From: Agelas oroides
Taxonomy: Eukaryota; Porifera; Demospongiae; Agelasida; Agelasidae
Direction: 5' to 3'
Assembly: GCA_949130485.1 (NCBI GenBank)
Contig: OX422194.1
Location: forward strand, 4,600,699-4,664,698
Length of the DNA stretch: 64,000 nt
The notes below the pieces were generated by a model. That model saw only the letters and a list, made by a program, of their open reading frames with translations, was not told the origin of the DNA and did not search any database. A program made the position numbers and the translations under genes. Of this stretch, positions 1 through 40,234 are shown one piece after another. Numbering within the stretch: position 1 is the stretch's first letter; every line of letters begins with the position of its first letter.

Positions 1-1003
1 CACACTCTACCCTGGCTCGACCCGACTCTACCTCACTTTACCACACTCTACCCTGGCTAGACCCGACTCTACCTCACTCTACCACACTCTACCCTGGCTT
101 GACCCGACTCTAACTCCCTCTACCACACCCTACCCTGGCTCGACCCGACTCTACCTCACTCTACCACACTCTACCTTGGCTCGACACGACTCTATCTAAT
201 TCCACCACACTCTAACCTGGCTCGACCTGACTCTACCTCACTCTACCACACTGTACTCTGTCTCGACCCGACTCTACCTCACTCTACCACACTCTACCCC
301 GAATCTACCTCACTCTACCACACTCTACCCTGCCTCGACCAAATTCTACCTCACTCTACTACACTCTACCCTGGCTCGACCCGACTCTACCTCACTCTAC
401 CACAGTCTACCTTGGCTCGACCCAACTCTATCTAATTCCACTACACTCTAACCTGGTTCGACATGACTCTACCTCACTCTACCATACTCTACCCTGGCTA
501 GACCCGACTCTACCTCACTTTACCACACTCTACCCTGGCTCGACACGACTGTACCTAAGTCTACCACACTCTACCCCGACTCTACCTCACTCTACCACAC
601 TTTACCCTGGCTCGACCCGACTCTACCTCACTCTACCACACTCTACCCTGGGTCGACCCGACTCTACCTCACTCTACCACACTCTAACCTTGGTCGACCC
701 GACTGTACCTCATTCTACCACACTCTACCCCGACTCTACCTCACTCTACCACACTCTATCCTGGCTCGACCCGACTCTACCTCACTCTACCACACTCTAC
801 CCCGACTCTACCTCACTCTACCACTCTCTACCGCGACTCTACCTCACTCTACCACACTCTACCCTGGCTCGACCCGACTCTACCTCACTTTACCACACTC
901 TACCCTGGATAGACCCGACTCTACCTCACTCTACCACACTCTACCCTGGCTTGACCCGACTCTAACACCCTCTACCACACCCTACCCTGGCTCGACCCGA
1001 CTC

Positions 1004-1775
1004 TACCTCACTCTACCACACTCTACCCTGGCTCGACACGACTGTACCTCTGTCTATCACACTCTACCCCTGTTCTACCTCACTCTACCACACTCTACCC
1101 TGACTCGAGCCGACTCTTCCTCACTTTTCCACACTCTATCCTGGCTCGACCCGACTCCACCTCATTCTACCACACTCTACCCTGACTCTACCTCACTATA
1201 CCACACTCTATCCTGGTTCGACCCGGGTCTACCTCACTCTACCACACTCTACCCCCATTCGACCCGAATCTACCTCACTCTACAACGCTCTACCCCAGGT
1301 CTACCCGACTCTACCTCACTCTACGACGCTCTACCCCGGCTCGAACCGACTCTACCTCACTCTTTCCCGCTCTACCCCGACTCCACCTCACTCTACCACA
1401 CTCTACCCTGGCTCGACACGACTGTACCTCTGTCTATCACACTCTACCCCTGTTCTACCTCACTCTACCACACTCTACCCTGACTCGAGCCGACTCTTCC
1501 TCACTTTTCCACACTCTATCCTGGCTCGACCCGACTCCACCTCATTCTACCACACTCTACCCTGACTCTACCTCACTATACCACACTCTATCCTGGTTCG
1601 ACCCGGGTCTACCTCACTCTACCACACTCTACCCCCATTCGACCCGAATCTACCTCACTCTACAACGCTCTACCCCAGGTCTACCCGACTCTACCTCACT
1701 CTACGACGCTCTACCCCGGCTCGAACCGACTCTACCTCACTCTTTCCCGCTCTACCCCGACTCCACCTCACTCTA
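1004..1775 (+). repeat. Perfect 380-bp tandem duplication
   Basis: Positions 1004-1395 read identically to 1384-1775, an offset of 380 bp with no mismatch that I could find over about 392 bp. 380 equals 7 x 41 + 3 x 31, a whole number of monomers. The flanks differ (ACCACAC against ATCACAC just past 1395/1775), which sets the edge. Neighbouring copies of the same segment at about 4461 and 7641 carry several differences. The duplication is therefore very recent, consistent with unequal crossing-over or replication slippage in register. Confidence 0.9.
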
Positions 1776-4700
1776 TCACACTCTACCCTGGCTCGACCCG
1801 ACTCTACCTCACCCTACCACTCTCTACCCCGAATCTACCTCACTCTACCACACTCTACCATGGCTCGACCCGACTCTACCTCACTCTACCACACTCTAAT
1901 CTCGCTCGAACCGACTCTACCTCACTCTACCACACTCTACCCTGGCTTGACCCGACTCTACCTCACTCTACCACACTCTACCCCCACTCCACCTCAGTCT
2001 ACCTCACTCTACCACACTCTACCCTGGCTTGACCCGACTCTACCACACTCTACCACTTTCTACCCCGACTCTACCTCACTCTACCACACTCTAACCTGGC
2101 TCGACCCGACTCTACCTCACTCTACCACACTGTACTCTGTCTCGACCCGACTCTACCTCACTCTACCACACTCTACCCCGAATCTACCTCACTCTACCAC
2201 ACTCTACCCTGCCTCGACCAAATTCTACCTCACTCTACTACACTCTACCCTGGCTAGACCCGACTCTACCTCACTCTACCACAGTCTACCTTGGCTCGAC
2301 CCGACTCTATCTAATTCCACCACACTCTAACCTGGTTCGACATGACTCTACCTCACTCTACCATATTCTAACCTGGCTAGACCCGACTCTACCTCACTTT
2401 ACCACACTCTAACCTGGCTCGACCCGACTGTACGTAAGTCTACCACACTCTACCCGGACTCTACCTCACTCTACCACACTTTACCCTGGCTCGACCCGAC
2501 TCTACCTCACTCTACCACACTCTACCCTGGGTCGACCCGACTCTACCTTACTCTACCACACTCTACCCTGGGTCGACCCGACTGTACCTCATTCTACCAC
2601 ACTCTACCCCGACTCTACCTCACTCTACCACACTCTATCCTGGCTCGACCCGACTCTACCTCACTCTACCACACTCTACCCCGACTCTACCTCACTCTAC
2701 CACTCTCTACCGGAACTCTACCTCACTCTACCACACTCTACCCTGGCTAGACCCGACTCTACCTCACTTTACCACACTCTACCCTGGCTAGACCCGACTC
2801 TACCTCACTATACCACACTCTACCCTGGCTTGACCCGACTCTACCTCACTCTACAACTCTGTACCCCTAATCTACCTCACTCTACCACACTCTACCCTGG
2901 CTCGACCAGACTCTACCTCACTCTACCACACGGTACTCTGTCTCGACCCGACTCTACCTCACTCTACCACACTCTACCCTGGCTCGACCCGACTCTACCT
3001 CACTCTACCACAGTCTACCTTGGCTCGACCCGAATCTACCTCACTCTTCCACACTCTACCCTAACTCGACCCGACTGTACCTAACTCTACTACACTCTAC
3101 CCTAGCTAGACCCGACTCCACCTCACTCTACCACAGTCTACCCTGGCTCGACCCGGCTCTATCAAACTCTACCACACTCTATCCTGGCTCGATACGACTC
3201 TACCTCACTCTACCACACTCTACCCTGGCTAGACACGACTCTACCTCACTCTACCACACTCTACCCTGGCTCGACACGACTGTACCTCTGTCTATCACAC
3301 TCTACCCCTGTTCTACCTCACTCTACCACACTCTACCCTGACCCGAGCCGACTGTTCCTCACTCTACCACACTCTACCCTGGCTCGACCAGACTCCACCT
3401 CATTCTACCACACTCTACCCTGACTCTACCTCACTATACCACACTCTATCCTGGTTCGACCCGGGTCTACCTCACTCTACCACACTCTACCCCCACTCGA
3501 CCAGACTCTACCTCACTCTACCACACTCTACCCTGGCTCGACACGACTCTCCCTCACTCTACCACACTCTACCCTGGCTCGACCCGACTCTACCTCACTC
3601 TACCACACTCTACCCCGACTCCACCTCAGTCTACCTCACTCTACCACACTCTACCCTGGCTTGACCCGACTCTACCACACTCTACCACTTTCTACCCCGA
3701 CTCTACCTCACTCTACCACACTCTAACCTGGCTCGACCCGACTCTACCTCACTCTACCACACTCTACCCTGCCTCGACCAAATTCTACCTCACTCTACTA
3801 CACTCTACCCTGGCTAGACCCGACTCTACCTCACTCTACCAGTGTCTACCTTGGCTCGACCCGACTCTATCTAATTCCACCACACTCTAACCTGGTTCGA
3901 CATGACTCTTCCTCACTCTACCATAGTACCCTGGCTAGACCCGACTCTACCTCACTTTACCACACTCTACCCTGGCTCGACCCGACTGTACCTAAGTCTA
4001 CCACACTCTACCCCGACTCTACCTCACTCTACCACACTTTACCCTGGCTCGACCCGACTCTACCTCACTCTACCACACTCTAACCTGGGTCGACCCGACT
4101 CTACCTCACTCTACCACACTCTACCCTTGGTCGACCCGACTGTACCTCATTCTACCACACTCTACCCCGACTCTACCTCACTCTACCACACTCTATCCTG
4201 GCTCGACCCGACTCTACCTCACTCTACCACACTCTACCCAGACTCTACCTCACTCTACCACTCTCTACCGCGACTCTACCTCACTCTACCACACTCTACC
4301 CTGGCTCGAACCGACTCTACCTCACTTTACCACACTCTACCCTGGCTAGACCCGACTCTACCTCACTCTACCACACTCTACCCTGGCTTGACCCGACTCT
4401 AACTCCCTCTACCACACCCTACCCTGGCTCGACCCGACTCTACCTCACTCTACCCCACTCTACCCTGGCTCGACACGACTGTACCTCTGTCTATCACACT
4501 CTACCCCTGTTCTACCTCACTCTACCACACTCTACCCTGACTCGAGCCGACTCTTCCTCACTCTTCCACACTCTATCCTGGCTCGACCCGACTCCACCTC
4601 ATTCTACCACACTCTACCCTGACTCTACCTCAATATACCACACTCTATCCTGGTTCGACCCGGGTCTACCTCACTCTACCACACTCTACCCCCACTCGAC

Positions 4701-7700
4701 CCGACTCTACCTCACTCTACAACGCTCTACCCCAGGTCTACCCGACTCTACCTCACTCTACGACGCTCTACCCCGGCTCGAACCGACTCTACCTCACTCT
4801 TTCCCGCTCTACCCCGACTCCACCTCACTCTATCACACTCTACCCTGGCTCGACCCGACTCTACCTTACCCTACCACTCTCTACCCCGAATCTACCTCAC
4901 TCTACCACACTCTACCATGGCTCGACCCGACTCTACCTCACTCTACCACACTCTAATCTCGCTCGAACCGACTCTACCTCACTCTACCACACTCTACCCT
5001 GGCTCGACCCGACTCTACCTCACTCTACCCCGACTGCACCTCAGTCTACCTCACTCTACCACACTCTACCCTGGCTTGACCCGACTCTACCACACTCTAC
5101 CACTTTCTACCCCGACTCTACCTCACTCTACCACACTCTAACCTGGCTCGACCCGACTCTACCTCACTCTACCACACTGTACTCTGTCTCGACCCGACTC
5201 TACCTCACTCTACCACACTCTACCCCGAATCTACCTCACTCTACCACACTCTACCCTGCCTCGACCAAATTCTACCTCACTCTACCACACTCTACCCTGG
5301 CTAGACCAGACTCTACCTCACTCTACCACAGTCTACATTGGCTCGACCCGACTCTATCTAATTCCACCACACTCTAACCTGGTTCGACATGACTCTACCT
5401 CACTCTACCATACTCTACCCTGGCTAGACCCGACTCTACCTCACACTACCCTGGGTCGACCCGACTGTACCTCATTCTACCACACTCTACCCCGACTCTA
5501 CCTCACTCTACCACACTCTATCTTGGCTCGACCCGACTCAACCTCACTCTACCACACTCTACCCCGACTCTACCTCACTCTGCCACTCTCTACCGCGACT
5601 CTACCTCACTCTACCACACTCTACCCTGGCTCGACCCGACTCTACCTCACTCTACCACACTCTACCCCGATTCCACCTCAGTCTACCTCACTCTACCACA
5701 CTCTACCCTGGCTTGACCCGACTCTACCACACTCTACCACTTTCTACCCCGACTCTACCTCACTCTACCACACTCTAACCTGGCTCGACCCGACTCTACC
5801 TCACTCTACCACACTGTACTCTGTCTCGACCCGACTCTACCTCACTCTACCACACTCTACCCCGAATCTACTTCACTCTACCACACTCTACCCTGCCTCG
5901 ACCAAATTCTACCTCACTCTACTACACTCTACCCTGGCTAGACCCAACTCTACCTCACTCTACCACAGTCTACCTTGGCTCGACCCGACTCTATCTAATT
6001 CCACCACACTCTAACCTGGTTCGACATGATTCTACCTCACTCTACCATACTCTACCCTGGCTAGACCCGACTCTACCTCACTCTACCACACTCTACCCTG
6101 GGTCGACCCGACTGTACCTCATTCTACCACACTCTACCCCGACTCTACCTCACTCTACCACACTCTATCCTGGCTCGACCCGACTCAACCTCACTCTACT
6201 ACACTCTACCCTGGCTAGACCCGACTCTACCTCACTCTACCACAGTCTACCTTGGCTCGACCCGACTCTATCTAATTCCACCACACTCTAACCTGGTTCG
6301 ACATGACTCTACCTCACTCTACCATACTCTACCCTGGCTAGACCCGACTCTACCTCACTCTACCCTGGGTCGACCGGACTGTACCTCATTCTACCACACT
6401 CTACCCCGACTCTACCTCACTCTACCACACTCTATCCTGGCTCGACCTGACCCAACCTCACTCTACCACACTCTACCCCGACTCTACCTCACTCTGCCAC
6501 TCTCTACCGCGACTCTACCTCACTCTACCACACTCTACCCTGGCTCGACCCGACTCTACCTCACTTTACCACACTCTACCCTGGCTAGACCCGACTCTAC
6601 CTCACTATATCACACTCTACCCTGGCTTGACCCGACTCTAACTCCCTCTACCACACCCTACCCTGACTCGACCCGACTCTACCTCACTCTTCCAAACTCT
6701 ACCCTGTTTCGACCCGACTCTACCTCACTCTACCACATTCTACCTGGCTCGACCCCACTCTACGTCACTTTACTACACTCTACTCTGGCTCGACCCGACT
6801 CTACCTCACTCTACCACACTCTACCATGGCTCGACTCAATTCTACCTCACTCTACCACACTCTACCCCGACTCTACTTCACTCTACCACACTCTATCCTA
6901 GCTCGACCCGACTCTACCTCACTCTACCACTCTCTACCCCGACTCTACCTCACTTTATCACACTCTACCCTGGCTCGACCCGACTGTACCTATGTCTACC
7001 ACACTCTACCCCGACTCTACCTCACTCTACCACACTTTACCCTGGCTCGACCCGACTCTACCTCACTCTACCACACTCTACCCTGGGTCGACCCGACTCT
7101 ACCTCACTCTACCACACTCTACCCTTGGTCGACCCGACTGTACCTCATTCTACCACACTCTACCCCGACTCTACCTCACTCTACCACACTCTATCCTGGC
7201 TCGACCCGACTCTACCTCACTCTACCACACTCTACCCCGACTCTACCTCACTCTACCACTCTCTACCGCGACTCTACCTCACTCTACCACACTCTACCCT
7301 GGCTCGACCCGACTCTACCTCACTTTACCACACTCTACCCTGGCTAGACCCGACTCTACCTCACTCTACCACACTCTATCCTGGCTCGACCCGACTCTAC
7401 CTCACTCTACCACACTCTACCCCGACTCTACCTCACTCTACCACTCTCTACCGCGACTCTACCTCACTCTACCACACTCAACCCTGGCTCGACCCGACTC
7501 TACCTCACTTTACCACACTCTACCCTGGCTAGACCCGACTCTACCTCACTTTACCACACTCTAACCTGGCTTGACCCGACTCTAACTCCCTCTACCACAC
7601 CCTACCGTGGCTCGACCCGACTCTACCTCACTCTACCACACTCTGCCCTGGCTCGACACGACTGTACCTCTGTCTATCACACTCTACCCCTGTTCTACCT

Positions 7701-7950
7701 CACTCTACCACACTCTACCCTGACTCGAGCCGACTCTTCCTCACTCTACCACACTCTACCCTGGCTCGACCCGACTCCACCTCATTCTACCACACTCTAC
7801 CCTGACTCTACCTCACTATACCACACTCTATCCTGGTTCGACCCGGGTCTACCTCACTCTACCACACTCTACCCGCACTCGACCCGACTCTACCTCACTC
7901 TACAACGCTCTACCCCAGGTCTACCTGACTCTACCTCACTCTACAACGCT

Positions 7951-9344
7951 CTACCCTGGCTCGAACCGACTCTACCTCACTCTTTCCCGCTCTACCCCGA
8001 CTCCACCTCACTCTATCACACTCTACACTGGCTCGACCCGACTCTACCTCACCCTACCACTCTCTACCCCGAATCTACCTCACTCTACCACACTCAACCA
8101 TGGCTCGACCCGACTCTACCTCACTCTACCACACTCTAATCTTGCTCGAACCGACTCTACCTCACTCTACCACACTCTACCCTGGCTCGACCCGACTCTA
8201 CCTCACTCTACCACACCCTACCCCGACTCCTCCTCAGTCTACCTCACTCTACCACACTCTACCCTGGCTTGACCCGACTCTACCACACTCTACCACTTTC
8301 TACCCCGACTCTACCTCACTCTACCACACTCTAACCTGGCTCGACCCGACTCTACCTCACTCTACCACACTGTACTCTGTCCCGACCCGACTCTACCTCA
8401 CTCTACCACACTCTACCCCGAATCTACCTCACTCTACCACACTCTACCCTGCATCGACCAAATTCTACCTCACTCTACTACACTCTACCCTGGCTAGACC
8501 CGACTCTACCTCACTCTACTACAGTCTACCTTGGCTCGACCCGACTCTATCTAATTCCACCACACTCTAACCTGGTTCGACACGACTCTACCTCACTCTA
8601 CCATACTCTACACTGGCTAGACCCGACTCTACCTCACTTTACCACACTCTACCCTGGCTCGAACCGACTCTACCTCACTCTACCCTCTCTACCCCGACTC
8701 CACCTCACTCTATCACACTCTACCCTGGCTCGACCCGACTCTACCTCAGCCTAGCACTCTCTACCCCGAATCTACCTCACTCTACCACACTCTACCATGG
8801 CTCGACCCGACTCTACCTCACTCTACCACACTCTAATCTCGCTCGAACCGACTCTACCTCACTCTACCACACTCAACCCTGGCTCGACCCGACTCTACCT
8901 CACTCTACCACACTCTATCCCGACTCCACCTCAGTCTACCTCACTCTACCACACTCTACCCTGGCTTGACCCGACTCTACCACATTCTACCACTTTCTAC
9001 CCCGACTCTACCTCACTCTACCACACTCTAACCTGGCTCGACCCGACTCTACCTCACTCTACCACACTGTACTCTGTCTCGACCCGACTCTACCTCACTC
9101 TACCACACTCTACCCCGAATCTACCTCACTCTACCACACTCTACCCTGCCTCGACCAAATTCTACCTCACTCTACCACACTCTACCCTGGCTAGACCCGA
9201 CTCTACCTCACTCTTACCGCAGTCTACCTTGGCTCGACCCGACTCTATCTAATTCCACCACACTCTAACCTGGTTCGACATGACTCTACCTCACTCTACC
9301 ATACTCTACCCTGGCTAGACCCGACTCTACCTCACTCTACCACA
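7951..9344 (+). repeat. Two 697-bp tandem units with a rare internal junction
   Basis: About 7951-8647 and 8648-9344 are two copies offset by 697-698 bp: markers at 8100 and 8797, and at about 8550 and 9247. Near 8640-8690 the first unit jumps straight from the CATACTC/GGCTAGACCC segment to the segment that normally precedes the ATGG variant, skipping roughly 800 bp of the usual domain I order. The same unusual junction is present, reversed, in the inverted block (about 12780-12900). Confidence 0.75.
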
Positions 9345-11380
9345 CTCTACCCTGGGTCGACCCGACTGTACCTCATTCTACCACACTCTACCCCGACTCT
9401 ACCTCACTCTACCACACTCTATCCTGGCTCGACCCGACTCAACCTCACTCTACCACACTCTACCCCGACTCTACCTCACTCTGCCCCTCTCTACCGCGAC
9501 TCTACCTCTCTCTACCACACCCTACCCTGGCTCGACCCGACTCTACCTCACTTTACCACACTCTACCCTGGCTAGACCCGACTCTACCTCACTATACCAC
9601 ACTCTACCCTGGCTTGACCCGACTCTACCGCTCTCTACCACACACTACCCTTGCTCGACCCGACTCTACCTCACTCTACAACACTCTACCCTGTTTCGAC
9701 CCGACTCTACCTCACTCTACCACACTCTACCTGGCTCGACCCCACTCTACGTCACTTTACTACACTCTACTCTGGCTCGACCCGACTCTACCTCACTCTA
9801 CCACACTCTACCCTGGCTCGACTCAATTCTACCTCACTCTACCACACTCTAGCCCGACTCTACTTCACTCTACTACACTCTATCCTAGCTCGACCCGACT
9901 CTACCTCACTCTACCACTCTCTACCCCGACTCTACCTCACTCTACCACACTCTACCCTGGCTCGACCCGACTCTACCTCACTCTACCGCACTCTACCCTG
10001 GCAAGACCCGACTCTACATAACTCTACCACACTCTACCCAGACTTGACCCGACTCTACCTCACTCTTCCTCACTCTACCGTACCTCTCCCTCACTCTACC
10101 ACACTCTATCCTTGCTCGAACCGACTCTACCTCACTCTACCACACTCTACCCTGACTCTACCTCACTCTACCACTCTCTACCCCGACTCTACCTCATTCT
10201 ACCACACTCTACCCTGTTTCAACCCGACTCCACCTCACTCTACCACACTCTACCCAGGCTCTATCCGACTCTACCTCACTCTACTACACTCTACCCTGGC
10301 TCGACCCGACTCTACCTCACTCTACCACACTCTACCATGGCTCGATCCGACTCTACCTCACTCTACCACACTCTACCCGACTCTACGTCACTCTACCACA
10401 CTCTATCCTGGCTAGACCCAAGTCTACCTCACTCTACCACACTCTACCCCGGCTCGACCCGACTCTACCTCACTCTACCCCGCTCTTCCTCGATTCAACC
10501 TCACTCTATCACAGTCTACCCTGGCTCGACCCGACTCTACCACACTCTATCCTGGCTAGACCCTACTCTACCTCACACTACCACACTCTACCCCGGCTCG
10601 ACCCGACTCTACCTCACTCTACCCCGCTCTACCTCGACTCAACCTCACTCTATCACAGTCTACCCTGGGTCGACCCGACTCTACCTCACTCTACCACTCT
10701 CTTCCCCGATTCTACCTTACTCTACCACACTCTACACTGGCTCGACCCGACTCTACCTCACTCTACCACACTCTACCCCGACTCCACCTCAGTCTACCTC
10801 ACTCTACCACACTCTACCCCCACTCGACCCGACTCTACCTCACTCTACAACGCTCTACCTCAGGTCTACCCGACTCTACCTCACTCTACGACGCTCTACC
10901 CCGGCTTGAACCGACTCTACCTCACTCTTTCCCGCTCTACCCCGACTCCACCTCACTCTATCACACTCTATCCTGGCTCGACCCGACTCTACCTCACCCT
11001 ACCACTCTCTACCCCGAATCTACCTCACTCTACCACACTCTACCATGGCTCGACCCGACTCTACCTCACTCTACCACACTGTAATCTCGCTCGAACCGAC
11101 TCTACCTCACTCTACCACACTCTACCCTGGCTCGACCCGACTCTACCTCACTCTGCCACACTCTACCTCGACTCCACCTCAGTCTACCTCACTCTACCAC
11201 ACTCTACCCTGGCTTGACCCGACTCTACCACACTCTACCACTTTCAACACCGACTCTACCTCACTCTACCACACTCTAACCTGGCTCGACCCGACTCTAC
11301 CTCACTCTACCACACTGTACTCTGTCTCGACCCGACTCTACCTCACTCTACCACACTCTACCCCGAATCTACCTCACTCT

Positions 11381-13060
11381 AGGCCAGGGTAGAGTGTGGT
11401 AGAGTGATGTAGAGTTGGGTCGAAACAGGGTAGAGTGTGGTGGATTTAAGTAGAGTCGGGGTAGAGTGTGGTAGAGATATGTAGAGTCGGGTCTAGCCAG
11501 GGTAGAGTGCAGTAGAGTGAGGTAGAGTCTGGTCGAGCCAGGGTAGAGTGTGGTAGAGTGAGGTAGAGTCGTGGTAGAGAGTGGTAGAGTGAGGTAGAGT
11601 CGGGTCGAGCTAGGATAGAGTGTGGTAGAGTGAAGTAGAGTCGGGCTAGAGTGTGGTAGAGTGAGGTAGAATTGAGTCGAGCCAGGGTAGAGTGTGGCAG
11701 AGAGAGGTAGAGTCGGGTCGAGCCAGAGTAGAGTGTAGTAAAGTGACGTAGAGTGGGGTCGAGGCAGGTAGAGTGTGGTAGAGTGAGGTAGAGTCGGGTC
11801 GAAACAGGGTAGAGTTTGGTAGAGTGAGGTTGAGTCGGGTCGAGCCAGGTTAGGGTGTGGTAGAGGGAGTTAGAGTCGGGTCAAGCCAGGGTAGAGTGTG
11901 GTATAGTGAGGTAGAGTCGGGTCTAGCCAGGGTAGAGTATGGTAGAGTGAGGTAGAGTCGCGGTAGAGAGTGGCAGAGTGAGGTAGAGTCGGGGTAGAGT
12001 GTGGTAGAGTGAGGTAGAGTCGGGTCGAGCCAGGATAGAGTGTGGTAGAGTGAGGTAGATTTGGGGTAGAGTGTGGTAGAATGAGGTACAGTCGGGTCGA
12101 CCCAGGGTAGAGTGTGGTAGAGTGAGGTAGAGTCGGGTCGACCCAGGCTAGAGTGTGGTAGAGTGAGGTAGAGTCGGGTCTAGCCAGGGTAGAGTATGGT
12201 AGAGTGAGGAAGAGTCATGTCGAACCAGGTTAGAGTGTGGTGGAATTAGATAGAGTCGGGTCGAGCCAAGGTAGACTGTGGTAGAGTGAGGTAGTGTCGG
12301 GTCTAGCCAGGGTAGAGTGTAGTATAGAGTGAGGTAGAATTTGGTCGAGGCAGGGTAGAGTGTGGTAGAGTGAGGTAGATTCGGGGTAGAGTGTGGTAGA
12401 GTGAGGTAGAGTCGGGTCGAGACAGAGTACAGTGTGGTAGAGTGAGGTAGAGTCGGGTCGAGCCAGGTTAGAGTGTGGTAGAGTGAGGTAGAGTCGGGAT
12501 AGAAAGTGGTAGAGTGTGGTAGAGTCGGGTCAAGCCAGGGTAGAGTGTGGTAGAGTGAGGTAGACTGAGGTGGAGTCGGGGTAGAGTGTGGTAGAGTGAG
12601 GTAGAGTCGGGTCGAGCCAGGGTAGAGTGTGGTAGAGTGAGGTAAAGTCGGTTCGAGCGGGGTTAGAGTGTGGTAGAGTGAGGTAGAGTCGGGTCGAGGC
12701 ATGGTAGAGTGTGGTAGAGTGAGGTAGATTCGGGGTAGAGAGTGGTAGGGTGAGGTAGAGTCGGGTCGAGCCAGGGTAGAATGTGATAGAGTTAGGTGGA
12801 GTCGGGGTAGAGCGGGGTAGAGTGAGGTAGAGTCGGTTCGAGCCAGGGTAGAGTGTGGTAAAGTGAGGTAGAGTCGGGTCTAGCCAGGGTAGAGTATGGT
12901 AGAGTGAGGTAGAGTCATGTCGAACCAGGTTAGAGTGTGGAGGAATTAGATGGAGTCTGGTCGAGCCAAGGTAGACTGTGGTAGAGTGAGGTAGAGTCGG
13001 GTCTAGCCAGGTTAGAATGTAGTAGAGTGAGGTAGAATTTGGTCGAGGCAGGGTAGAGCT
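11381..13060 (-). repeat. Inverted block of the satellite (~1.68 kb)
   Basis: At 11380/11381 the sequence changes abruptly from CTCTACC-type to its complement (GGTAGAG-type), and it changes back at about 13059-13061. Both edges are known to within about 3 bp. Read on the minus strand, the block is ordinary domain I sequence matching about 8447-10055, including the rare junction seen at 8640-8690. The last plus-strand words before the block (11361-11380) are those that elsewhere precede the CCTGCCTCGACCAAATTC segment, and that segment is exactly what starts the reverse complement at 13058. Flipping the block back restores the monomer register apart from about 5 bp missing at one edge and 1 bp extra at the other. 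It is the only place in the window with minus-strand open frames. An in-place inversion fits better than insertion of a copy in reverse orientation. Confidence 0.93.
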
Positions 13061-15300
13061 CAACCCGACTCTACCTCACTCTACCACACTCTACCCCGAC
13101 TCTAACTGATTCTACCACTCTCTACCCCGACTCTACCTCACTCTACCACGCTCAACCCTGGCTCGTCCCAACTCTACCTCACTTTACAACATTCTACCCT
13201 GGCTCGACCCAACTCTACCTCACTTTACCACTACCCTGGCTCGACCCGACTCTTCCTCACTCTACCACACTCTACCTTGGCTCGACCCGACTCTACCACA
13301 CTTTACCACACTCTACCCTGGCTAGACCCGACTCTACCTAACTCTACCACATTCTACCCTGACTCTACTTAAATCCACCACACTCTACCCTGTTTCGACC
13401 CGACTCTACCTCACTCTACCACACTCTACCCTGCCTCGACCCGACTCTACCTCACTCTACCTCAATCTATCCTGGCTCGAACCGACTCTACCTCACTCTA
13501 CCACACTCTACCCCGACTCTACCTCACTCTACCACCCTCTACCCCGACTCTCCCTCACTCTACCACACTCTACCCTGTTTCGACCCGACTCTACCTCACT
13601 CTACCACACTCTACCTGGCTCGACCCTACTCTACGTCACTTTACCACACTTTACTCTGGCTCGACCCGACTCTACCTCACTCTACCAACTCTCTACGCTG
13701 GCTCGACTCGACTCTACCTCACTCTACAACACTCTAGCCTGACTCTACTTCACTCTACCACACTCTATCCTAGCTCGACCCGACTCTACCTCACTCTACC
13801 ACATTCTACCCCGACTCTACCTCATTCTACCACTCTCTACCCCGACTCTACCTCACTCTACCACACTCAAACCTGGCTCGTCCCAACTCTACCTCATTTT
13901 ACAACACTCTAACCTGGCTCGACCCGACTCTACCTCACTCTACAACACTCTACCCTGGCTCGACCCGACTCTACCTCACTCTACCACACTCTACCCTGGC
14001 TAGACCCGACTCTACCTAACTCTACCACACTCAACCCCGACTCTACTTAAATCCACCACACTCTACCCTGTTTCGACCAGACTCTACCTCACTCTACCAC
14101 ACTCTACCCTGCCTCGACCCGACTCTACCTCACTCTACCACACTCTACCGTGACTCTACCTCACTCTACCACACTCTACCCCGACTCTACCTCACTCTAC
14201 CACCCTCTACCCCGACACTCCCTCCCTCTACCACACTCTACCTTGTTTCGACCCGACTCTACCTCACTCTACCACACTCTACCCTGGCTCGACCCGACTC
14301 TACCTCACTCTACTACACTCTACCCTCGCTCGACCCGACTCTACCTCACTCTACCACCCTCTACCCTGGCTAGATCCGACTTCACCTCACTCTACCACAC
14401 TCTACCCCGACTCTACCTCACTCTACCACACTCTACCCTGGTTCGACCCGACTCTACCTCACTCTACCACACTCTACCCCGGCTCGACCCGACTCTACCT
14501 CACTCTACCCCGCTCTACCCCGACTCAACCTCACTCTATCACAGTCTACCCTGGCTCGACCCGACTCTATCTCACTCTACCACTCTCTTCCCCGATTCTA
14601 CCTCACTGTACCACACTCTACACTGGCTCGACCCGACACAACCTCACTCTACCACACTCTACCCTGCCTTGACCCGACTATACCTCACTCTTCCACACTC
14701 TACCCTTACTCGACCCGACTCTACCTCACTCTACCTTATTCTACCCTGGTTTGACCCGACTCTACCTCACTCTACCACACTCTACCCCGACTCTACCTCA
14801 GTCTACCTCACTCTACCACACTCTACCCTGGCTTGACCCGACTCTACCTCACTCTATCACTCTCTACCCCAAATCTACATCACTCTACGGCAGTCTACCC
14901 TGGCTCAACCCGACTCTACCTCACTCTACCACACTGTACTCTGTCTCGACCCGACTCTACCTCACTCTACCACACTCTACTATGGCTCCATCCGATTCTA
15001 CCTCACTGTTACCACACTCTACACTGGCTCGACCCGAATCTACCTCACTCAACCACACTCTACCCTGGCTCGACACGACTCTACCTAACTCTACCACACT
15101 CTACCCTGGCTCGACCAGACTCTACCTCACTCTACCACACTCTACCCCGAATCTACCTCACTCTACCACACTCTACCCTGGCTCGAGCCGACTCTACCTC
15201 ACTCTACCACACTCTACCCTGGCTCGACCAGACTCTACCTCAATCTACCACACTCTACCCTGGCTCGACTGAACTCTACCTCACTCTACTACACTCTACT

Positions 15301-17045
15301 CTGACTAGACCCGACTCTACCTCACTCTAGCACACTCTACCACTCTACCCTGGATAGACCAGAATCTACCTTACTCTACCACACTCTACCCTCGGTCGAC
15401 CCGAATCTACTTCACTCTACCACATTCTACCCTGGCTTGACCCGACTCTACCTCACTCTACCACACTCTATCCTGGCACGATCCGACACCACCTCACTCT
15501 ACCACACGCTACCCCGACTCTACCTTACTCTACCACACTCTACCCTCCCTCGAACCGACTCTACCTCACTCTACCACACTCCACACCGACTTGACCCGAC
15601 TCTACCTCACTCTACCACGCTCTACCGCGGCTAGACCCGACTCTACCTCACTCTACCCCGCTCTACCCCAACTCTACCTCACTCTACCACACTCTACCCC
15701 GTCTCTACCTCACTCTACCACTCTCTACCTCACTCTACCACACTCTACCCTGGATCGACCCGACTCTACCTCACTTTACCACACTCTACCCTGGCTAGAC
15801 CCGATTCTACCTCACTATACCACACCCTACCCTGGCTTTACCCGACTCTAACTCCCTCTACCACACTCTACCCTGGCTCGACCAGACTCTACCTCACTCT
15901 ACCACACTCTACCCTGTTTCGACCCGATTCTACCTCACTCTACCACACCCTACTTGGCTCGACCCCACTCTACGTCACTTTACCACACTCTACTCTGGCT
16001 CGACCCGACTCTACCTCACTCTACCACACTCTACCCCGACTCTACCTCATTCTACCACTCTCTATCCCGACTCTACCTCACTCTACCACACTCAACCTTG
16101 GCTCGTCACGGCTCTACCTCACTTTACAACACTCTACCTTGGCTCGACCCATCTCTACCTCACTTTACCACACTCTCCCCTGGCTCGACCCGACTCAACC
16201 CCACTCTACCACACTCTACCCTGGCTCGACCCGACTCTACCTCACTCTACTACACTCTACCCTGACTAGACCCGACTCTACCTCACTCTAGCACACTCTA
16301 CCACTCTACCCTGGATAGACCAGAATCTACCTTACTCTACCACACTCTACCCTCGGTCGACCCGAATCTACTTCACTCTACCACATTCTACCCTGGCTTG
16401 ACCCGACTCTACCTCACTCTACCACACTCTACCCTGGCTCGACCCGACACCACCTCAGTCTACCACGCTCTACCCTGGCTCGACCTGACTCTACCTCACT
16501 CTACCACACGCTACCCCGACTCTACCTTACTCTACCACACTCTACCCTCCCTCGAACCGACTCTACCTCACTCTAGCACACTCCACACCGACTTGACCCG
16601 ACTCTACCTCACTCTACCACGCTCTACCCCGGCTAGACCCGACTCTACCTCACTCTACCCAGCTCTACCCCGAATCTACCTCACTCTACCACACTCTACC
16701 CTGTTTCGACCCGATTCTACCTCACTCTACCACACTCTACCTGGCTCGACCCCACTCTACGTTACTTTACCACACTCTACTCTGGCTCGACCCGACTCTA
16801 CCTCACTCTACCCCACTCTACCCCGACTCTACCTCATTCTACCACTCTCTATCCCGACTCTACCTCACTCTACCACACTCAACCCTGGCTCGTCACGACT
16901 CTACCTCACTTACCAACACTCTATCTTGGCTCAACCCATCTCTACTTCACTTTACCACACTCTCCCCTGGCTCGACCCGACTCTACCCCACTCTACCCTG
17001 GCTCGACCCGACTCTACCTCACTCTACTACACTCTACCCTGGCTA
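15301..17045 (+). repeat. Internal duplication, 961 and ~784 bp copies
   Basis: 15301-16261 and 16262 to about 17045 start with the same unusual run, which includes TAGCACACTC, CCACTCTACCCTGGATAG and CCTCGGTCG. They continue in parallel through the CCCTCCCTCGAACC and ACTCCACACCGAC variants, the TGTTTCGACCCGATTC stretch (about 15915 and 16702) and the CTCGTCACG variant (about 16110 and 16890). The second copy is shorter by internal loss of several monomers. Divergence is visible, so this duplication is older than the 380-bp one. Confidence 0.75.
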
Positions 17046-18104
17046 GACCCGACTCTACCTAACTCTACCACACTCTACCCCGACTCTACTTAAATCCACC
17101 ACACTCTACCCTGTTTCGACCCGACTCTACCTCACTCTACCACACTCTACCCTGCCTCGACCCGACTCTACCTCACTCTACAACACTCTACCGTGACTCT
17201 ACTTCACTCCACCACACTCTATCCTGGCTCGAACCGACTCTACCTCACTCTACCACACTCTGCCCAGACTCTACCTCACTCTACCACTCTCTACCCCGAC
17301 TCTACCTCACTCTACCACACTCTACCCTGTTTAGAGCCGACTCTACCTCACTCTACCACACTCTACCCTGGCTCGACCCGACTCTACCTCACTCTACTAC
17401 ACTCTTCCCTGGCTCGACCCGACTCTACCTCACTCTACCACACTCTACCCAGACTCTACCTCACTCTACCATACGCTATCCTGGTTCGACCCGACTCTAC
17501 CTCACTCTACCACACTCTACCCCGGCTCGACCCGACTCTACCTCACTCTACCCCGCTCTACCCCGACTTAACCTCACTCTATCACAGTCTACCCTGGCTC
17601 GACCCGACTCTACCTCACTCTACCACTCTCTTCCCCGATTCTACCTCACTCTACCACACTCTACACTGGCTCGACCCGACTCTACCTCACTCTACCACAC
17701 TCTACCCTGCCTCGACCCGACTATACCTCACTCTTGCACACTCTACCCTTACTCGACCCGACTCTACCTCACTCTACCATATTCTACCCTGGTTTGACCC
17801 GACTCTACCTCACTCTACCACACTCTACCCCGACTCTACCTCAGTCTACCTCACTCTACCACACTCTACCCTGGCTTGACCCAACTCTACCTCACTCTAC
17901 CACTCTGTACCCCGAATCTACCTCACTCTACGGCAGTCTACCCTGGCTCGACCCGACTCTACCTCATTCTACCACACTGTACTATGTCTCGACCCGACTC
18001 TACCTCACTCTACCACACTCTACTCTGGCTCGACCCGATTCTACCTCACTCTACCACAGTCTACACTGGCTCGACCCAAATCTACCTCACTCTACCACAC
18101 TCTA

Positions 18105-18560
18105 CCCCGAATCTACCACACTCTACCACACTCTACTCTTGCTCGAGCCGACTCTACCTCACTCTACCACACTGTATTCTGGCTCGAGCCGACTCTACCT
18201 CACTCTACCACACTCTACCCTGCATAGACCAGACTCTACCTCACTCTACCACACTCTATCCTGGCTCGACCCGAATCTACTTCACTCTACCACATTCTAC
18301 CCTGGATTGACCTGACTCTACCTCACTCTACCACACTCTACCCTGGCTTGACCAGACTATGCCTCACTCTACCACACTCTACCCCGAATCTACCACACTC
18401 TACCACACTCTACTATTGCTCGAGCCGACTCTAGCTCACTCTACCACACTGTATTCTGGCTCGAGCCGACTCTACCTCACTCTACCACGCTGTATTCTGG
18501 CTCGAGCCGACACTACCTCACTCTACCACACTCTACCCTGGCTCGACCCGAATCTACTTC
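18105..18560 (+). repeat. 277-bp duplication with TGTATTC / GGCTCGAGCC units
   Basis: The variant CCCCGAATCTACCACACTC occurs at 18105 and again at 18382, followed both times by a CTTGCTCGAGCC or ATTGCTCGAGCC unit and then the TGTATTCTGGCTCGAGCC unit. The latter is itself doubled near 18460-18510. The GGCTCGAGCC form of the first decamer is a perfect 10-bp palindrome and is enriched here and in domain IV. Confidence 0.7.
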
Positions 18561-20146
18561 ACTCTACCACATTCTACCCTGGCTCGACCCGACTCTACCT
18601 CACTCTACCACACTCTACCCTGGCTCGACCAGACTCTACCTCACTCTACAACACTCTACCCTGGCTCGACTCGACTCTATCTCACTTTCCCACACGGTAC
18701 TCTGTCTCGACCCGACTCTACCTCACTCTACCACACTCTACCCTGGCTCGACCCGACTCTACCTCACTCTACAACAGTCTACCCTGGCTCGAACCGAATC
18801 TACCTCACTCTTCCACACTCTACCGTAACTCAACCCGACTGTACCTCACTCTACTACACTCTATCCTAGCTAGACCCGACTCCACCTCACTCTACCACAG
18901 TCTACCCTGGCTCGACCCGACTCTATCAAACTCTACCACACTCTACCCTGGCTCGACACGACTCTACCTCACTCTACCACACTCTACCACACTCTACCCT
19001 CGCTAGATCCGACTCTATCTCACTCTACGACACTCTACCCTGCTTCGACACGACTGTACCTCTGTCTACCACACTCTACCCCGATTCTACCTCACTCTAC
19101 GACAATCTACTCTGGCTCGAGCCGACTCTACCTAACTCTACCACACTCTACCCCGACTCTACTTAAATCTACCACACTCTAGCCTGTTTCGACCCGACTC
19201 TACCTCACTCTACCACACTCTACCCTGGCTCGACACGACTCTACCTCACTCTACCACACTCTACTCTGGCTCGACCCGACTCTTCCTCACTCTACCACAC
19301 TCTACCCTGGCTCGACCCAACTCCACCTAATTCTACCACACTGTACCCTGACTCTACCTCACTCTACCACACTCTATCCTGGCTCGACCGGAGTGTACCT
19401 CACTCTACCACACTCTACCCCGACTCGACCCGACTTTACCTCACTCTACCATGCTCTATCCCAGCTCTACCCGACTCTACCTCACTCTACCACGCTCTAT
19501 CTTGGCTCGACCTGACTCTACCTCACTCTACCACACTCTACCCCGACTCTACCTCAGTCTACCACGCTCTACCCTGGATCGACCCGACTCTACCACACTC
19601 TACCACATGCTACCCCGACTCTAACTTACTCTACCACACTCTACCCTGCCTCGAACCGACTCTACCTCACTCTACCACACTCTACTCCGACTCGACCCGA
19701 CTCTACCTCAATCTACCACACTCTACCCCAGCTCGAACCGACTCTACCTCACTCTACCCCGCTCTACCCCGACTCTACCTCACTCTATCACACTCTACCC
19801 TGGCTCGACCCGACTCTACCTCACTCTACCACTCTCTTCCCAGATTCTACCTCACTCTACCACACTCTACACTGGCTCGACCCGACTCTACCTCACTCCA
19901 CCACACTCTACCCTGCATCGATCCGACTCTACCTCACTCTACTACAATCTATTCTTGCTCGACCCGACTCTACCTCACTCTACCACACTCTACCCTGGCT
20001 CGACCAGACTCTACCTCACTCTACCACACTCTACCCCAACTCTACTTCAGTCTACCTCACTCTACCACACTCTACCCTGGCTTGACCCGACTCTACCTCA
20101 CTCTACCACTCTCTACCCCGACTCTACCTCACTCTACCACACTCTA

Positions 20147-23100
20147 CCCCAACTCTACTTCAGTCTACCTCACTCTACTACAATCTACTCTTGCTCGACC
20201 CGATTCTACCTCACTCTACCACACTCTACCCTGGCTCGACCAGAATCTACCTCACTCTACCACACTCTACCCTGCCTAGACCCAATTCTACCTCACTCTA
20301 CTACACTCTACCCTGGCTAGACACGATTCTACCTCACTCTACCACAGTCTACCCTACCTAGACCCGAATCTATCTAATTCCACCACACTCTAACCTGGTT
20401 CGACATGACTCTACCTCACTCTACCATACTCTACCCTGTCTACACCCGACTCTACCTCACTCTACCACACTCTACCCTGGCTCGACCCGACTGTACCTCA
20501 GTCTACCACACTCTACCCCGACTCTACCTCACTCTACCACACTCAACCTTGGCTAGTCACGACTCTACCTCACTTTACAACACTCTACCCTGGCTCGACC
20601 CGACTCTACCTCACTCTACCACACTCTACCCTTGCTCGACCCGACTCTACCTCACTCTACCATACTCTACCGTGACTCTACCTCACTCTACCACACTCTA
20701 TCCTGGGTTTACCCGACTCTACCTCACTCTACAACACTCTACCCTGTTTCGACCCGACTCTACCTCACTCTACCACACTCTACCCTGGCTCGACCCCACC
20801 CTACGTAACTTTACCACACTCTACTCTGGCTCCACCCGACTCTACCTCACTCTACCACACTCTACCCTGGCTCGACTCGACTCTACCTCACTCTACCACA
20901 TTCTACCCTGACTCTACCTCACTCTACCACACTAAAACATGGCTCGACCCGACTCTACCTCACTCTACCACACTCTACCCCGACTCTACCTCACTCTACC
21001 ACCCTCTACCCCGACTCTACCTCACTCTACCACACTCTACCCTTGCTCGACCCGACTCTACCTCACTTTACCACACTCTACCCTGGCTTGACCCGACTCT
21101 ACCTCACTCTACCACACTCTACCCTGGCTTGACCCGACTCTAACTTCCTCTACCACACTCTACCCTGGTTCGACCAGACTCTACCTCACTCTACCACACT
21201 CTACCCTGACTCGACCCAATTCTACCCCACTCTACCACACTCTACCACGACTCTGCCTAAATCTACCACACTCTACGCTGTTTCGAACCGACTCTAGCTC
21301 ACTCTGCCACACTCTACCCTGGCTCGACCCCACTCTACTTCATTTTACCACACTCTACTCTGGCTTGACCAGACTCTACCTCACTCTACCACACTCTACC
21401 CTCGCTCGACTCGACTCTACCTCACTCTACCACACTCTATCCCGACTCTACCTCACTCTACCACACTCTATCCTAGCTCGACCCGACTCTACCTCTCTCT
21501 ACCACACTCTACCTCATTCTACCACTCTCTACCCCGACTCTACCTTACTCTACCACACTCAACCCTGGCTCGTCCCAACTCTACCTCACTTTACAACACT
21601 CTACCCTGGCTCGACCTGACTCTACCTCACTCTACCATACTCCACCGTGACTCTACCTCACTCTACCACACTCTATCCTTGGTTCACCCGACTGTACCTC
21701 ACTCTACAACACTCTACACTGGCTCGACCCAATTCTACCTCACTGTACCACACTCTACAACGACTGTGCCTAAATCTACCACACTCTACCTTGTTTCGAC
21801 CCGACTCTACCTCACTCTACCACACTCTACCCTTGCTCGACCCGACTCTACCTCACTCTACCACACTCTACCCTGGCTCGAGCCGACTCTACCTCACTCT
21901 ACCACACTCTACCTTGGTTCGACCCATCCCTGCCTCACTCTACCACAAACTACCCCGACTCTACCTCACTCTACCACAAACTACCCCGACTCTACCTCAC
22001 TCTAACACACTCTATCCTGGCTCGACCTGACTCATCCTCACTCTACCCCGCTTTACCCCGACTCTACCTCACTCTACCATACTCTACCCTGGAACGATCC
22101 GACTCTACCTCACTCTATGACTCTATACACCGACTCTACCTCACTCTACCACACTCTTCCCTGGCTCGACCCGACTCTACCTCACTCTACCACATTCTAC
22201 CGTGGCTCGCCCCGACTCTACCTCACTCTACCACACACTACCCAGACTCTACCTCACTCTACCTCACTCTACCACTTTCTACCCAGGCTTGATCCGACTC
22301 TATCTCACTCTACCACCCTCTACCCTGGCTCGACCAGACTCTACCTCACTCTACCACAATCTACCCTGGCTCGACCCGACTCTAACTCACTGTAGCACAC
22401 TCTACCCTGGCTCGACCCGACTCTACCTCACTCTACCACATTCTACCCTGCATCGCCCCGACTTTACCTCACTCTACCACACACTACCCCGACTCTACCT
22501 CACTCTACCTTACTCTACCACTCTCTACCCCGACTCTACCTCACACTACCACACTCTACCCTTGCTCGACCGGACTGTACCTCACTCTACCACACTCTAC
22601 CCTGGCTAGACCCGACTCTACCTCACTGTGCTACACTCTACCCTTCCTCAACCCGACTCTACCGCACTCTACCACACTCTACCCTTGCTCGACCCAACTC
22701 TACCTCACTCTACCACGTTCTACCTTGGTTCGACCCAACTCTACCTCACTCTACCACACTCTATCCTGTCTCGACCTCACTCTACCTCACTCTATCACAC
22801 TCTACCCTGGCTCGACCCGACACTACCTCACTCTACCACACTCTACCCTGGCTCGACCCGACTCTACCTCACTCTACCACTCTCTGCCCCGACTCTACCT
22901 CACTCTACCACACTCTACCCTCGCTCGACCCGACTCTACCTCACTCCTCCACATTCTACCCTGGCTCTACCTGACTCTACCTCACTCCATAACACTCTAC
23001 CTTGACTCGACCCGACTCTACCTCACTCTACTACACTCTACCCTGGCTCGACCAGAATATACCTCCCTCTACCACACTCTATCCTGGCTCGACCCGACTC

Positions 23101-26100
23101 TACCTCACTCTACCACACTCTACCCTTGCTCGACCCGACTCTACCTCACTCTACCACCCTCTACCCTGGCTAGACCCGACTCTACCTCACTGTACCACAC
23201 TCTACCCTTCCTCGACCCGACTCTACCGCTCTCTACCACACTCTACCCTTGCTCGACCCGACTCTACCTCACTCTACCACACTCTACCTTGGTTCGACCC
23301 AAATCTACCTCACTCTACCACAAACTACCCCGACTCTACCTCACCCTATTACAATCTACGCTGGCTCGACTTGTCTCTACCTCACTCTACCACACTCTAT
23401 CCTGTCTCGACTTCACTCTACCTAACTCTACCACACTCTACCCTGGCTAGACCCGACTCTACCTCACTGTGCTACACTCTACCCTTCCTCAACCCGACTC
23501 TACCGCACTCTACCACACTCTACCCTTGCTCGACCCAACTCTACCTCACTCTACCACGTTCTACCTTGGTTCGACCCAACTCTACCTCACTCTACCACAC
23601 TCTATCCTGTCTCGACCTCACTCTACCTCACTCTACCACACTCTACCCTGGCTCGACCCGACACTACCTCACTCTACCACACTCTACCCTGGCTCGACCC
23701 GACTCTACCTCACTCTACCACTCTCTGCCCCGACTCTACCTCACTCTACCACACTCTACCCTCGCTCGACCCGACTCTACCTCACTCCTCCACATTCTAC
23801 CCTGGCTCTACCTGACTCTACCTCACTCCATAACACTCTACCTTGACTCGACCCGACTCTACCTTACTCTACTACACTCTACCCTGGCTCGACCAGAATA
23901 TACCTCCCTCTACCACACTCTATCCTGGCTCGACCCGACTCTACCTCACTCTACCACACTCTACCCCGACTCTACCTCACTCTACCACACTCTACCCTGG
24001 CTCGACCCGACTCTACCTCACTCTACCACATTGTACTCTGCCTCGACCCGACTCTACCTTACTCTACCACTCTCTACCCCGACTGTACCGCACTCTACCA
24101 CACTCTACCCTTGCTCGACCCAACTCTACCTCACTCTACCACACTCTATCCTGTCTCGACCTCACTCTACCTCACTCTACCACACTCTACCCTGGCTCGA
24201 CCCGACACTACCTCACTCTACCACACTCTACCCTGGCTCGACCCGACTCTACCTCACTCTACCACTCTCTGCCCCGACTCTACCTCACTCTACCACACTC
24301 TACCCTCGCTCGACCCGACTCTACCTCACTCCTCCACATTCTACCCTGGCTCTACCTGACTCTACCTCACTCCATAACACTCTACCTTGACTCGACCCGA
24401 CTCTACCTCACTCTACTACACTCTACCCTGGCTCGACCAGAATATACCTCCCTCTACCGCACTCTATCCTGGCTCGACCCGACTCTACCTCACTCTACCA
24501 CACTCTACCCTTGCTCGACCCGACTCTACCTCACTCTACCACCCTCTACCCTGGCTAGACCCGACTCTACCTCACTGTACCACACTCTACCCTTCCTCGA
24601 CCCGACTCTACCGCTTTCTACCACACTCTACCCTTGCTCGACCCGACTCTACCTCACTCTACCACACTCTACCTTGGTTCGACCCAAATCTACCTCACTC
24701 TACCACAAACTACCCCGACTCTACCTCACCCTATTACAATCTACGCTGGCTCGACTTGTCTCTACCTCACTCTACCACACTCTATCCTGTCTCGACTTCA
24801 CTCTACCTAACTCTACCACACTCTACCCTGGCTAGACCCGACTCTACCTCACTGTGCTACACTCTACCCTTCCTCAACCCGACTCTACCGCACTCTACCA
24901 CACTCTACCCTTGCTCGACCCAACTCTACCTCACTCTACCACGTTCTACCTTGGTTCGACCCAACTCTACCTCACTCTACCACACTCTATCCTGTCTCGA
25001 CCTCACTCTACCTCACTCTACCACACTCTACCCTGGCTCGACCCGACACTACCTCACTCTACCACACTCTACCCTGGCTCGACCCGACTCTACCTCACTC
25101 TACCACTCTCTGCCCCGACTCTACCTCACTCTACCACACTCTACCCTCGCTCGACCCGACTCTACCTCACTCCTCCACATTCTACCCTGGCTCTACCTGA
25201 CTCTACCTCACTCCATAACACTCTACCTTGACTCGACCCGACTCTACCTTACTCTACTACACTCTACCCTGGCTCAACCAGAATATACCTCCCTCTACCA
25301 CACTCTATCCTGGCTCGACCCGACTCTACCTCACTCTACCACACTCTACCCCGACTCTACCTCACTCTACCACACTCTACCCTGGCTCGATCCGACTCTA
25401 CCTCACTCTACCACATTGTACTCTGCCTCGACCCGACTCTACCTTACTCTACCACTCTCTACCCCGACTCTACCTCACACTACCACACTCTACCCTTGCT
25501 CGACCCGACTCTACCTCACTCTACCACCCTCTACCCTGGCTAGACCCGACTCTACCTCACTGTACCACACTCTACCCTTCCTCGACCCGACTCTACCGCT
25601 CTCTACCACACTCTACCCTTGCTCGACCCGACTCTACCTCACTCTACCACACTCTACCTTGGTTCGACCCAAATCTACCTCACTCTACCACAAACTACCC
25701 CGACTCTACCTCACCCTATTACAATCTACGCTGGCTCGACTTGTCTCTACCTCACTCTACCACACTCTATCCTGTCTCGACCTCACTCTACCTCACTCTA
25801 CCATACTCTACCCTGGCTCGACCCGACTCTACCTCACTCTATCACACTCTACCCCGACTCTACATCACTCTACCACACTGTACCCTGTCTCAACCCGACT
25901 GTACCGCACTCTACCACACTCTACCCTTGCTCGACCGGACTCTACCTCAGTCTACCACACTCTACCCTGGCTAGACCCGACTCTACCTCACTCTACCACA
26001 GTCTACCCTGGCTTGACCCGACTCTATCTAACTCTACCACACTCTACCCTGGCTCGACACGACTCTACCTCAGTCTACCACACTCTACCCTGGCGAGACC

Positions 26101-26190
26101 CGACTCTACCTCACTCTACCACACTATACCCCGACTCTACCTCATTCTACCACTCTCTACCCCGACTCTACCTCACTCTACCACACTCTA
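20147..26190 (+). repeat. Domain III unit 1 (6044 bp)
   Basis: This is the longest unit of the domain. Relative to unit 2 it keeps an extra block of about 123 bp (three monomers) at about 20335-20460 that carries the domain I-type TCTAATTCCACC variant, and it lacks one 41-bp monomer near 20590. 6044 - 123 + 41 equals the observed downstream offset of 5962. It also contains the 841/544/841 nested blocks. Confidence 0.8.
22628..25700 (+). repeat. Nested 841- and 544-bp blocks inside unit 1
   Basis: A block beginning with a CACTGTGCTACACTC variant starts at 22628, 23469 and 24854. A matching internal point, CCTTGACTCGACCCGAC, lies at 23002, 23843, 24387 and 25228. The spacings are 841, 544 and 841 bp, so this is a second level of tandem repetition inside the 6-kb unit. 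841 equals 19 x 41 + 2 x 31, and 544 equals 11 x 41 + 3 x 31. The 24013 block is truncated at its start. The same block occurs at 28580 and 29965 in unit 2 (1385 bp apart) and at 33720 in unit 3. The copy number of this block therefore explains much of the difference in unit length. Confidence 0.85.
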
Positions 26191-40185: not shown

Positions 40186-40234
40186 CCTGGCTCGACCCGA
40201 CTCTACCTCACTCTACCACACTCTACCCTGGCTC

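What the first reader, a model, noticed from the sequence alone, without database searches (positions are those of the whole stretch)
11381..13060. Clean in-place inversion inside the array
This 1.68-kb block is the only reverse-oriented part of the window. Flipped back, it continues the domain I variant order on its left edge and almost restores the repeat register on both edges (about 5 bp missing at one, 1 bp extra at the other). The block also carries the rare junction found at 8640-8690, so it is local material. Both breaks lie in or beside a monomer, with small end changes of the kind left by end joining. Inversions are hard to purge by unequal exchange and are useful markers of array history.
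Basis: seen in the sequence. Interest (0 to 1): 0.7.

Follow-up and report, generated by a model that had tools for sequence, protein, structure and literature searches.

The report
In-place inversion inside satellite array
A 1.7-kilobase piece of a long tandem-repeat array appears to have been cut out, flipped and rejoined in the same spot; the same repeat family carries at least eight other such flips, most of them about the length of DNA on one nucleosome, which hints at how they arise.

Summary
The window lies in a ~180-kb, one-way array of a C-rich 41/31-bp satellite, and 11382-13058 is its only reversed stretch. Flipped back, the block continues the left flank's variant order: 7 of 7 close copies of the left flank continue with the block's own start, plus 5 bp (CCACA) that the block lacks, and a ~2.95-kb duplication runs through that edge at 95-99%. 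The far ~180 bp of the flipped block carry right-hand variants (0 of 779 left-flank window triples are as right-like). So the block spans the domain boundary and was inverted in place, not copied in. No inverted homology lies at the breakpoints, so two breaks plus end joining fit best. Genome-wide it is not alone: I resolved nine distinct inversions of this family on four contigs, four of them in 2-3 copies. Block sizes are 121, 175, 176, 178, 178, 180, 200, 1194 and 1676 bp. Five of nine fall at 175-180 bp, nucleosome or Okazaki-fragment size. A satellite inversion is a known kind of event; the size class may be new. Raw reads could not be checked.

The parts
11382..13058 (-). inverted block (about 1677 bp; ends ambiguous by 1-3 bp)
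   Evidence: only strand-switched stretch of the ~180-kb array
11376..11390 (.). left (head-to-head) junction, CACTCTA|GGCCAGGG; CCACA lost relative to 7 of 7 close copies
   Evidence: pattern hit once at this place and nowhere else with this sequence
13052..13068 (.). right (tail-to-tail) junction, GGTAGAG|CTCAACCC; 1-2 extra bases on reversion
   Evidence: (once in the genome as held)
11382..11570 (-). part of the block carrying right-domain variants; the domain boundary lies at about 11570
11570..13058 (-). part of the block carrying left-domain variants; second copy of a ~2.95-kb tandem duplication
   Evidence: 95-99% in most 100-column bins, three at 89-93%; 57 of 1443 sites differ
6024..8435 (+). 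copy 1 of the local duplication, paralogous to the left flank 9000-11380
8442..9968 (+). copy 1 of the local duplication, forward paralogue of the inverted block
1..64000 (+). 41/31-bp C-rich satellite array (whole window; the array runs from about C12:4537.7k to 4718.9k)

Best explanation
A ~2.95-kb tandem duplication first made a second copy of 6024-9968, which came to lie next to right-domain material. Later two double-strand breaks, about 1.68 kb apart and on either side of that domain boundary, released a segment that was rejoined in place in the opposite orientation by end joining; about 5 bp were lost at one edge and 1-2 bp gained at the other. Shown by the sequence: orientation, in-place position, lack of inverted homology at the breaks. 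Inferred: the order (duplication before inversion), two breaks, end joining. The same process appears to have acted at least eight more times on this satellite, mostly on pieces of ~175-180 bp.
For: Left edge: 7 of 7 close copies of the left flank continue with the block's diagnostic start, plus CCACA, and a 95-99% paralogue runs through the edge. Right edge: the last three 160-bp windows inside the flipped block's end score -27/-25/-19 (right-like); such a triple mean occurs in 0 of 779 left-flank triples and 65 of 172 near right-flank triples. Phase: 15 of 18 edges of nine inversions are within 6 bp of register, binomial p 9e-6 against a uniform phase; flanks joined without the block are within 6 bp in 2 of 9 (jumps typed in). 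Breakpoint inverted homology is no higher than between random places (mean 2.67 bp against 3.07).
Against: No reads were available. The right-edge evidence is about 180 bp of variants with overlapping windows; windows at 13000 and 13040 are neutral, and 28% of windows in 4000-11220 are not left-like, with runs of -5 to -20 at 10000-10640. The right flank is not especially close to the sequence after 10115 (rank 1542 for 1420 bp); expected if the duplication ended inside the block, but no support. The 88.6% of the whole reverted sequence against 84-85% for joined flanks owes much to the block itself. Three of 18 edges are -10, +10 and -14 on the raw phase measure; I read them as 31/41-bp monomer alternatives. 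C15a and C15b are also nearly in phase without their blocks.
Confidence: 0.78

Rival explanations
1. Inserted inverted copy: a 1.68-kb reverse copy of 8442-10115 was written into the array by template switching, with nothing removed.
For: The best forward relative of the block is only 2.9 kb upstream. In the family, C10b's flipped block has a 98% copy 940 bp upstream.
Against: The copy would have to end by chance at the very paralogue of its own insertion point, contain right-domain material at the proper end, and sit in register while the joined flanks are 15 bp out of phase (also 15 for C10b).
Confidence: 0.08
2. In-place inversion made by replication: double template switching or flap misjoining at the fork, related to the FEN1-linked small inverted triplications (148/160/148 bp) of PMC13334657 (abstract and sections 2.5 and 3 read), with block size set by Okazaki fragments or nucleosomes.
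For: 5 of 9 block sizes in the family are 175-180 bp. C10a has 92.7% copies of its flipped block on both sides, 53 and 22 bp away; C15a has a 97% match over 72 bp starting 51 bp to its right, cut off by the end of the fetched stretch. Both resemble triplications.
Against: No inverted homology at the breakpoints of any of the nine. The window's block and C10c are over 1 kb. C4a and C4b have no copy above 90.4% within 1.5 kb on either side. C10d and C15b had too little flank to test.
Confidence: 0.15
3. Assembly artefact: the assembler turned round a repeat block.
For: Long satellite arrays are hard to assemble; no reads could be inspected.
Against: Graph-made inversions need long inverted repeats at both ends (general knowledge) and there are none. 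Fold-back chimaeras give a near-identical adjacent reverse copy; the best copy is 92.8% and 2.9 kb away. Three other inversions of the family have 2-3 copies with matching junctions (some with point mutations) and equal block length (C10d, C15a, C15b).
Confidence: 0.05
4. Recombination between inverted repeats flanking the segment.
For: Common route for large inversions (general knowledge).
Against: The array is one-way, and no shared inverted word longer than 3 bp lies within 12 bp of both breakpoints at any of the nine inversions.
Confidence: 0.02

Closest known systems
Inversions in primate alpha-satellite arrays (PMC9549924 and PMC11062924; passages read)
   Same: A strand-reversed stretch inside an otherwise one-way satellite array.
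   Different: Passages seen describe one inversion in human centromere 1 and large polymorphic inversions (3.2 Mb in an orangutan). Here blocks are 0.12-1.7 kb, resolved to within a few bases, and recurrent within one family.
Definite human-chimpanzee microinversions (PMC8755829; abstract and introduction read)
   Same: In-place replacement by the reverse complement.
   Different: Those are 17-33 nt and all flanked by inverted repeats; these are 121-1676 bp with none found.
Small inverted triplications (PMC13334657; abstract, sections 2.5 and 3 read)
   Same: Inverted unit of ~160 bp, tied by its authors to nucleosome dyads and Okazaki termini.
   Different: DUP/INV/DUP with a spacer and a 6-bp junction. 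Here the window's block has no adjacent direct copies; in the family only C10a and possibly C15a have triplication-like neighbours.

Membership tests
In-place (conservative) inversion | Flipping the block restores the sequence at the left edge | tested here: met
   7 of 7 close copies; 5 bp lost
In-place (conservative) inversion | Flipping the block restores the sequence at the right edge | tested here: met
   register restored to 1-2 bp by reading; right-domain variants at that end of the block; weaker than the left edge
In-place (conservative) inversion | Flanks not contiguous without the block | tested here: met
   joined flanks 15 bp out of phase; best hits of the joined flanks 84-85%
End-joining product | No extended inverted homology at breaks, small indels | tested here: met
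   3 bp at most; net -3 bp at the window's block by reading
Microinversion at inverted repeats (PMC8755829 type) | Flanking inverted repeats | tested here: not met
Small inverted triplication | Direct copies of the unit on both sides of the inverted unit | tested here: not met
   window block: best copy 2.9 kb away; in the family C10a is suggestive and C15a partly so
Real genomic variant rather than artefact | Spanning reads or other individuals | not testable with these tools
   no reads or second haplotype available

The most novel reading that the evidence does not exclude
Satellite arrays of this genome suffer a recurrent mutation in which the DNA of one nucleosome (about 175-180 bp) is cut out by paired linker breaks and rejoined flipped, by end joining without inverted homology; kilobase blocks such as the window's are the multi-nucleosome tail of the same process. 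One-way satellite arrays, where every flip is visible, would then record break-and-rejoin events at single-nucleosome resolution.
Probability: 0.3. Interest if true: 0.75.

Novelty: new member of a known kind. Interest (0 to 1): 0.5.

Why it matters
In a one-way tandem array an inversion is visible without an outgroup and cannot easily be removed by unequal exchange, so it is a clean record of breakage and rejoining in DNA usually left out of such studies. The window's block can be ordered against a duplication and a domain boundary, giving a relative history of the array. If the ~178-bp size class holds in a larger sample, it links chromatin or replication spacing to a specific germline rearrangement and makes that testable in any well assembled genome.

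Tried and rejected
Whole-block DNA search of the genome was answered but not scored, because of too many candidates. Testing the right edge by long-range paralogy gave nothing; short windows by domain worked. The claim that the rare junction 8640-8690 recurs in the block was not reproduced without indels. Fold-back (a constant offset between the two sides of a junction) was considered by eye from the phases and dropped: no constant offset. The flanking 21-bp satellite (44.8 kb held) has no strand switches. The tail-to-tail pattern is no commoner in the genome than its control (38 against 153 per strand), so its raw count means nothing; only the resolved places count. The head-to-head pattern exceeds its control (31 and 29 against 1 and 3).

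Paper searches: (strand switches or micro-inversions in satellites) gave 0 papers at its threshold. Searches gave related material; among the titles and abstract starts listed, mostly capped at 11-20 rows, I saw no report of nucleosome-sized inversions in satellites. That is a statement about those seven searches of an open-licence library only.

Size test: the script printed 4 rather than 5 for its narrow window through rounding; I use its wider window (5 of 9 within a factor 1.08, p about 1.2e-4 against log-uniform 50-3000, about 6 of 50,000 draws). It is post hoc. Three fetches were planned with the ~180-bp size in mind: searches showed blocks of 178 and 175 bp, one search showed one of 121 bp.

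Full report
Setting. The window is G000:C12:4600699-4664698 of a 259-Mb, 141-contig genome. It is a single C-rich satellite with 41-bp units and 31-bp variants. Strand-specific word counts on 264 kb of stitched sequence put the array at about C12:4537.7k-4718.9k, all in one orientation except one stretch. On both sides lies a different 21-bp satellite (on the stretches L001 and L016). Open reading frames about 20 kb beyond the right end (L018) hold Ig and fn3 domains, so the genome is probably an animal's; the species was not identified.

The observation. A two-strand cyclic-profile Viterbi finds switches at 11382 (forward to reverse) and 13058 (reverse to forward). Over the remaining ~178 kb of the array it finds only two 8-bp noise calls. 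The flipped block's best forward relative is 8442-10115, 92.8% identical; the next best are at 85.9%.

Left edge. The reverted sequence aligns without interruption to 6024-9968, at 95-99% in the bins on both sides of the edge. Seven other places match the last 150 bp of the left flank at 98% or better. All seven continue with CCACA and then the diagnostic sequence that begins the flipped block (five exactly, two with 1-2 differences); the block lacks CCACA. Block and adjoining flank (10836-11380) have similar divergence from that paralogue, 57 of 1443 and 17 of 545 sites; the longer flank 9200-11380 is more diverged, 139 of 2148. I infer that the inversion is younger than the ~2.95-kb tandem duplication that made the two copies.

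Right edge. Identity to the paralogue falls to 84-87% in the last ~150 bp of the flipped block. Those 150 bp match best at 17010, 108308, 111467, 94626 and other right-hand places. Scoring 160-bp windows by best match to the left array minus best match to the right array gives +40 at reverted coordinates 12760 and 12800 and -27, -25, -19 at 12880-12960. A triple mean as low occurs in 0 of 779 left-flank triples, 0 of 31 triples earlier in the block, and 65 of 172 triples of the near right flank. The block thus contains the boundary between the two variant domains, and in its present orientation the two pieces are swapped. Limits: windows overlap; the windows at 13000 and 13040 are neutral; 28% of windows at 4000-11220 are not left-like; and the longer right flank (1420 bp) is not specially close to the sequence following 10115 (rank 1542).

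Register. On the cyclic profile the raw jumps are 6 and -3 for the reverted block's two edges, and 15 for the flanks joined without the block. By reading, 4-5 bp are missing at the left and 1-2 bp extra at the right, net -3, depending on where the boundary is set.

Other members. Two genome-wide gapped patterns for head-to-head and tail-to-tail junctions gave hits in four contigs carrying this satellite in long arrays, and in other, related or unrelated sequence. The head-to-head pattern is well above its control, the tail-to-tail one is not (38 against 153), so only resolved places count. Resolving them gave nine distinct inversions: C12 (this window, 1676 bp), C4a 176-177, C4b 178, C10a 180, C10b 200, C10c 1194, C10d 178 and C15a 121, and C15b 175 bp. 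Each hit inside C4:6.64-6.72M, C10:2.82-3.19M, C12 and C15:5.28-5.31M belongs to one of these nine; the second to third copies were assigned by their junctions, without fetching them. One further head-to-head hit near the edge of the C4 array was left unresolved. The listings were cut off at 100 rows, so more arrays and more inversions may exist. Raw edge jumps within 6 bp of register: 15 of 18; the others are -10, +10 and -14, which I read as 31/41-bp monomer alternatives. Flanks joined without the block are within 6 bp in 2 of 9, namely C15a and C15b. C4b reverts with no base lost or gained if its boundary is shifted by one base; C10b does so too, with two substitutions at its right edge, or else has a -10 step there (my reading).

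Copies. Four events occur more than once: C10c twice (identical junction strings, head-to-tail distances 1190 and 1345), C10d three times (offset 170 each), C15a three times (offset 128 each) and C15b twice (offset 175 each). The window's two junctions occur once each. So inversions can be carried along by local duplication, and some copies have point mutations in their junctions.

Mechanism. For all nine, the longest inverted word shared within 12 bp of both breakpoints is 2-3 bp, no more than between random places of the array (mean 2.67 against 3.07). That argues against recombination between inverted repeats and against the inverted-repeat route proposed for human-chimpanzee microinversions (PMC8755829, abstract and introduction read). 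Two breaks and end joining fit best. Five of nine blocks are 175-180 bp. Against a log-uniform 50-3000 bp null, five of nine within a factor 1.08 has p about 1.2e-4, post hoc. Of three fetches planned around ~180 bp, two gave 178 and 175 and one gave 121. This size invites a single-nucleosome explanation, or an Okazaki-fragment one as for small inverted triplications (PMC13334657); the data here do not decide between them. Of the five small blocks with flank enough to test, C10a has 92.7% copies of its flipped block 53 and 22 bp to either side, C15a a 97% match over 72 bp 51 bp to its right (cut off by the end of the stretch), C10b a 98% copy 940 bp to its left, and C4a and C4b nothing above 90.4%. 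C10d and C15b could not be tested. C10a and perhaps C15a could therefore be triplications.

Known context. Satellite inversions are known: a review calls the centromere-1 inversion the single unique event in the live human centromeres (PMC9549924, passages), and megabase inversions vary in primate arrays (PMC11062924, passages); Brachypodium centromeres mostly consist of blocks on opposite strands (PMC10910784, passages). The window's feature is a new member of that kind. The possible size class is the new part.

Verdict. By 25-mer counts (649 in the held region, 11696 in the genome) the family may total about 3 Mb if density is even, a rough figure.

Noticed in passing
C4:6673.4k and 6714.0k; C10:2826.9k, 2829.4k, 3119.7k, 3171.8k; C15:5283.8k, 5297.6k (L025, L027, L042, L044, L045, L046, L047, L048): Eight further in-place inversions of the same satellite, six of them 175-200 bp long; four events are present in 2-3 copies.
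   Followed up: partly
C12:4500699 to ~4537.7k and ~4719k to ~4726k (L001-L004, L016, L017): A 21-bp satellite (TCTTGTCCCAATGCTGTCCAG) flanks the 41-bp array on both sides in the same orientation; no strand switches in 44.8 kb.
   Followed up: partly
C9:7336190-7342210 (L039-L041): A related, more diverged satellite with alternating forward and reverse stretches; the same head-to-head junction occurs twice, 1496 bp apart.
   Followed up: no
window ~43768-60272: A 26-bp doublet recurs four times at ~5.3-5.7 kb spacing (43768, 49047, 54715, 60218), and k-mer distances peak at 5130-5962 bp: higher-order repeats of the right-hand domain.
   Followed up: no
C4:6643600: Head-to-head switch close to the edge of the C4 array, not resolved.
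   Followed up: no
L018 (C12:4734.7k-4744.7k), L020 (C12:4754.7k-4764.7k): Open reading frames with immunoglobulin and fibronectin III domains in L018; a V-set match in L020 is below its curated cut-off.
   Followed up: no
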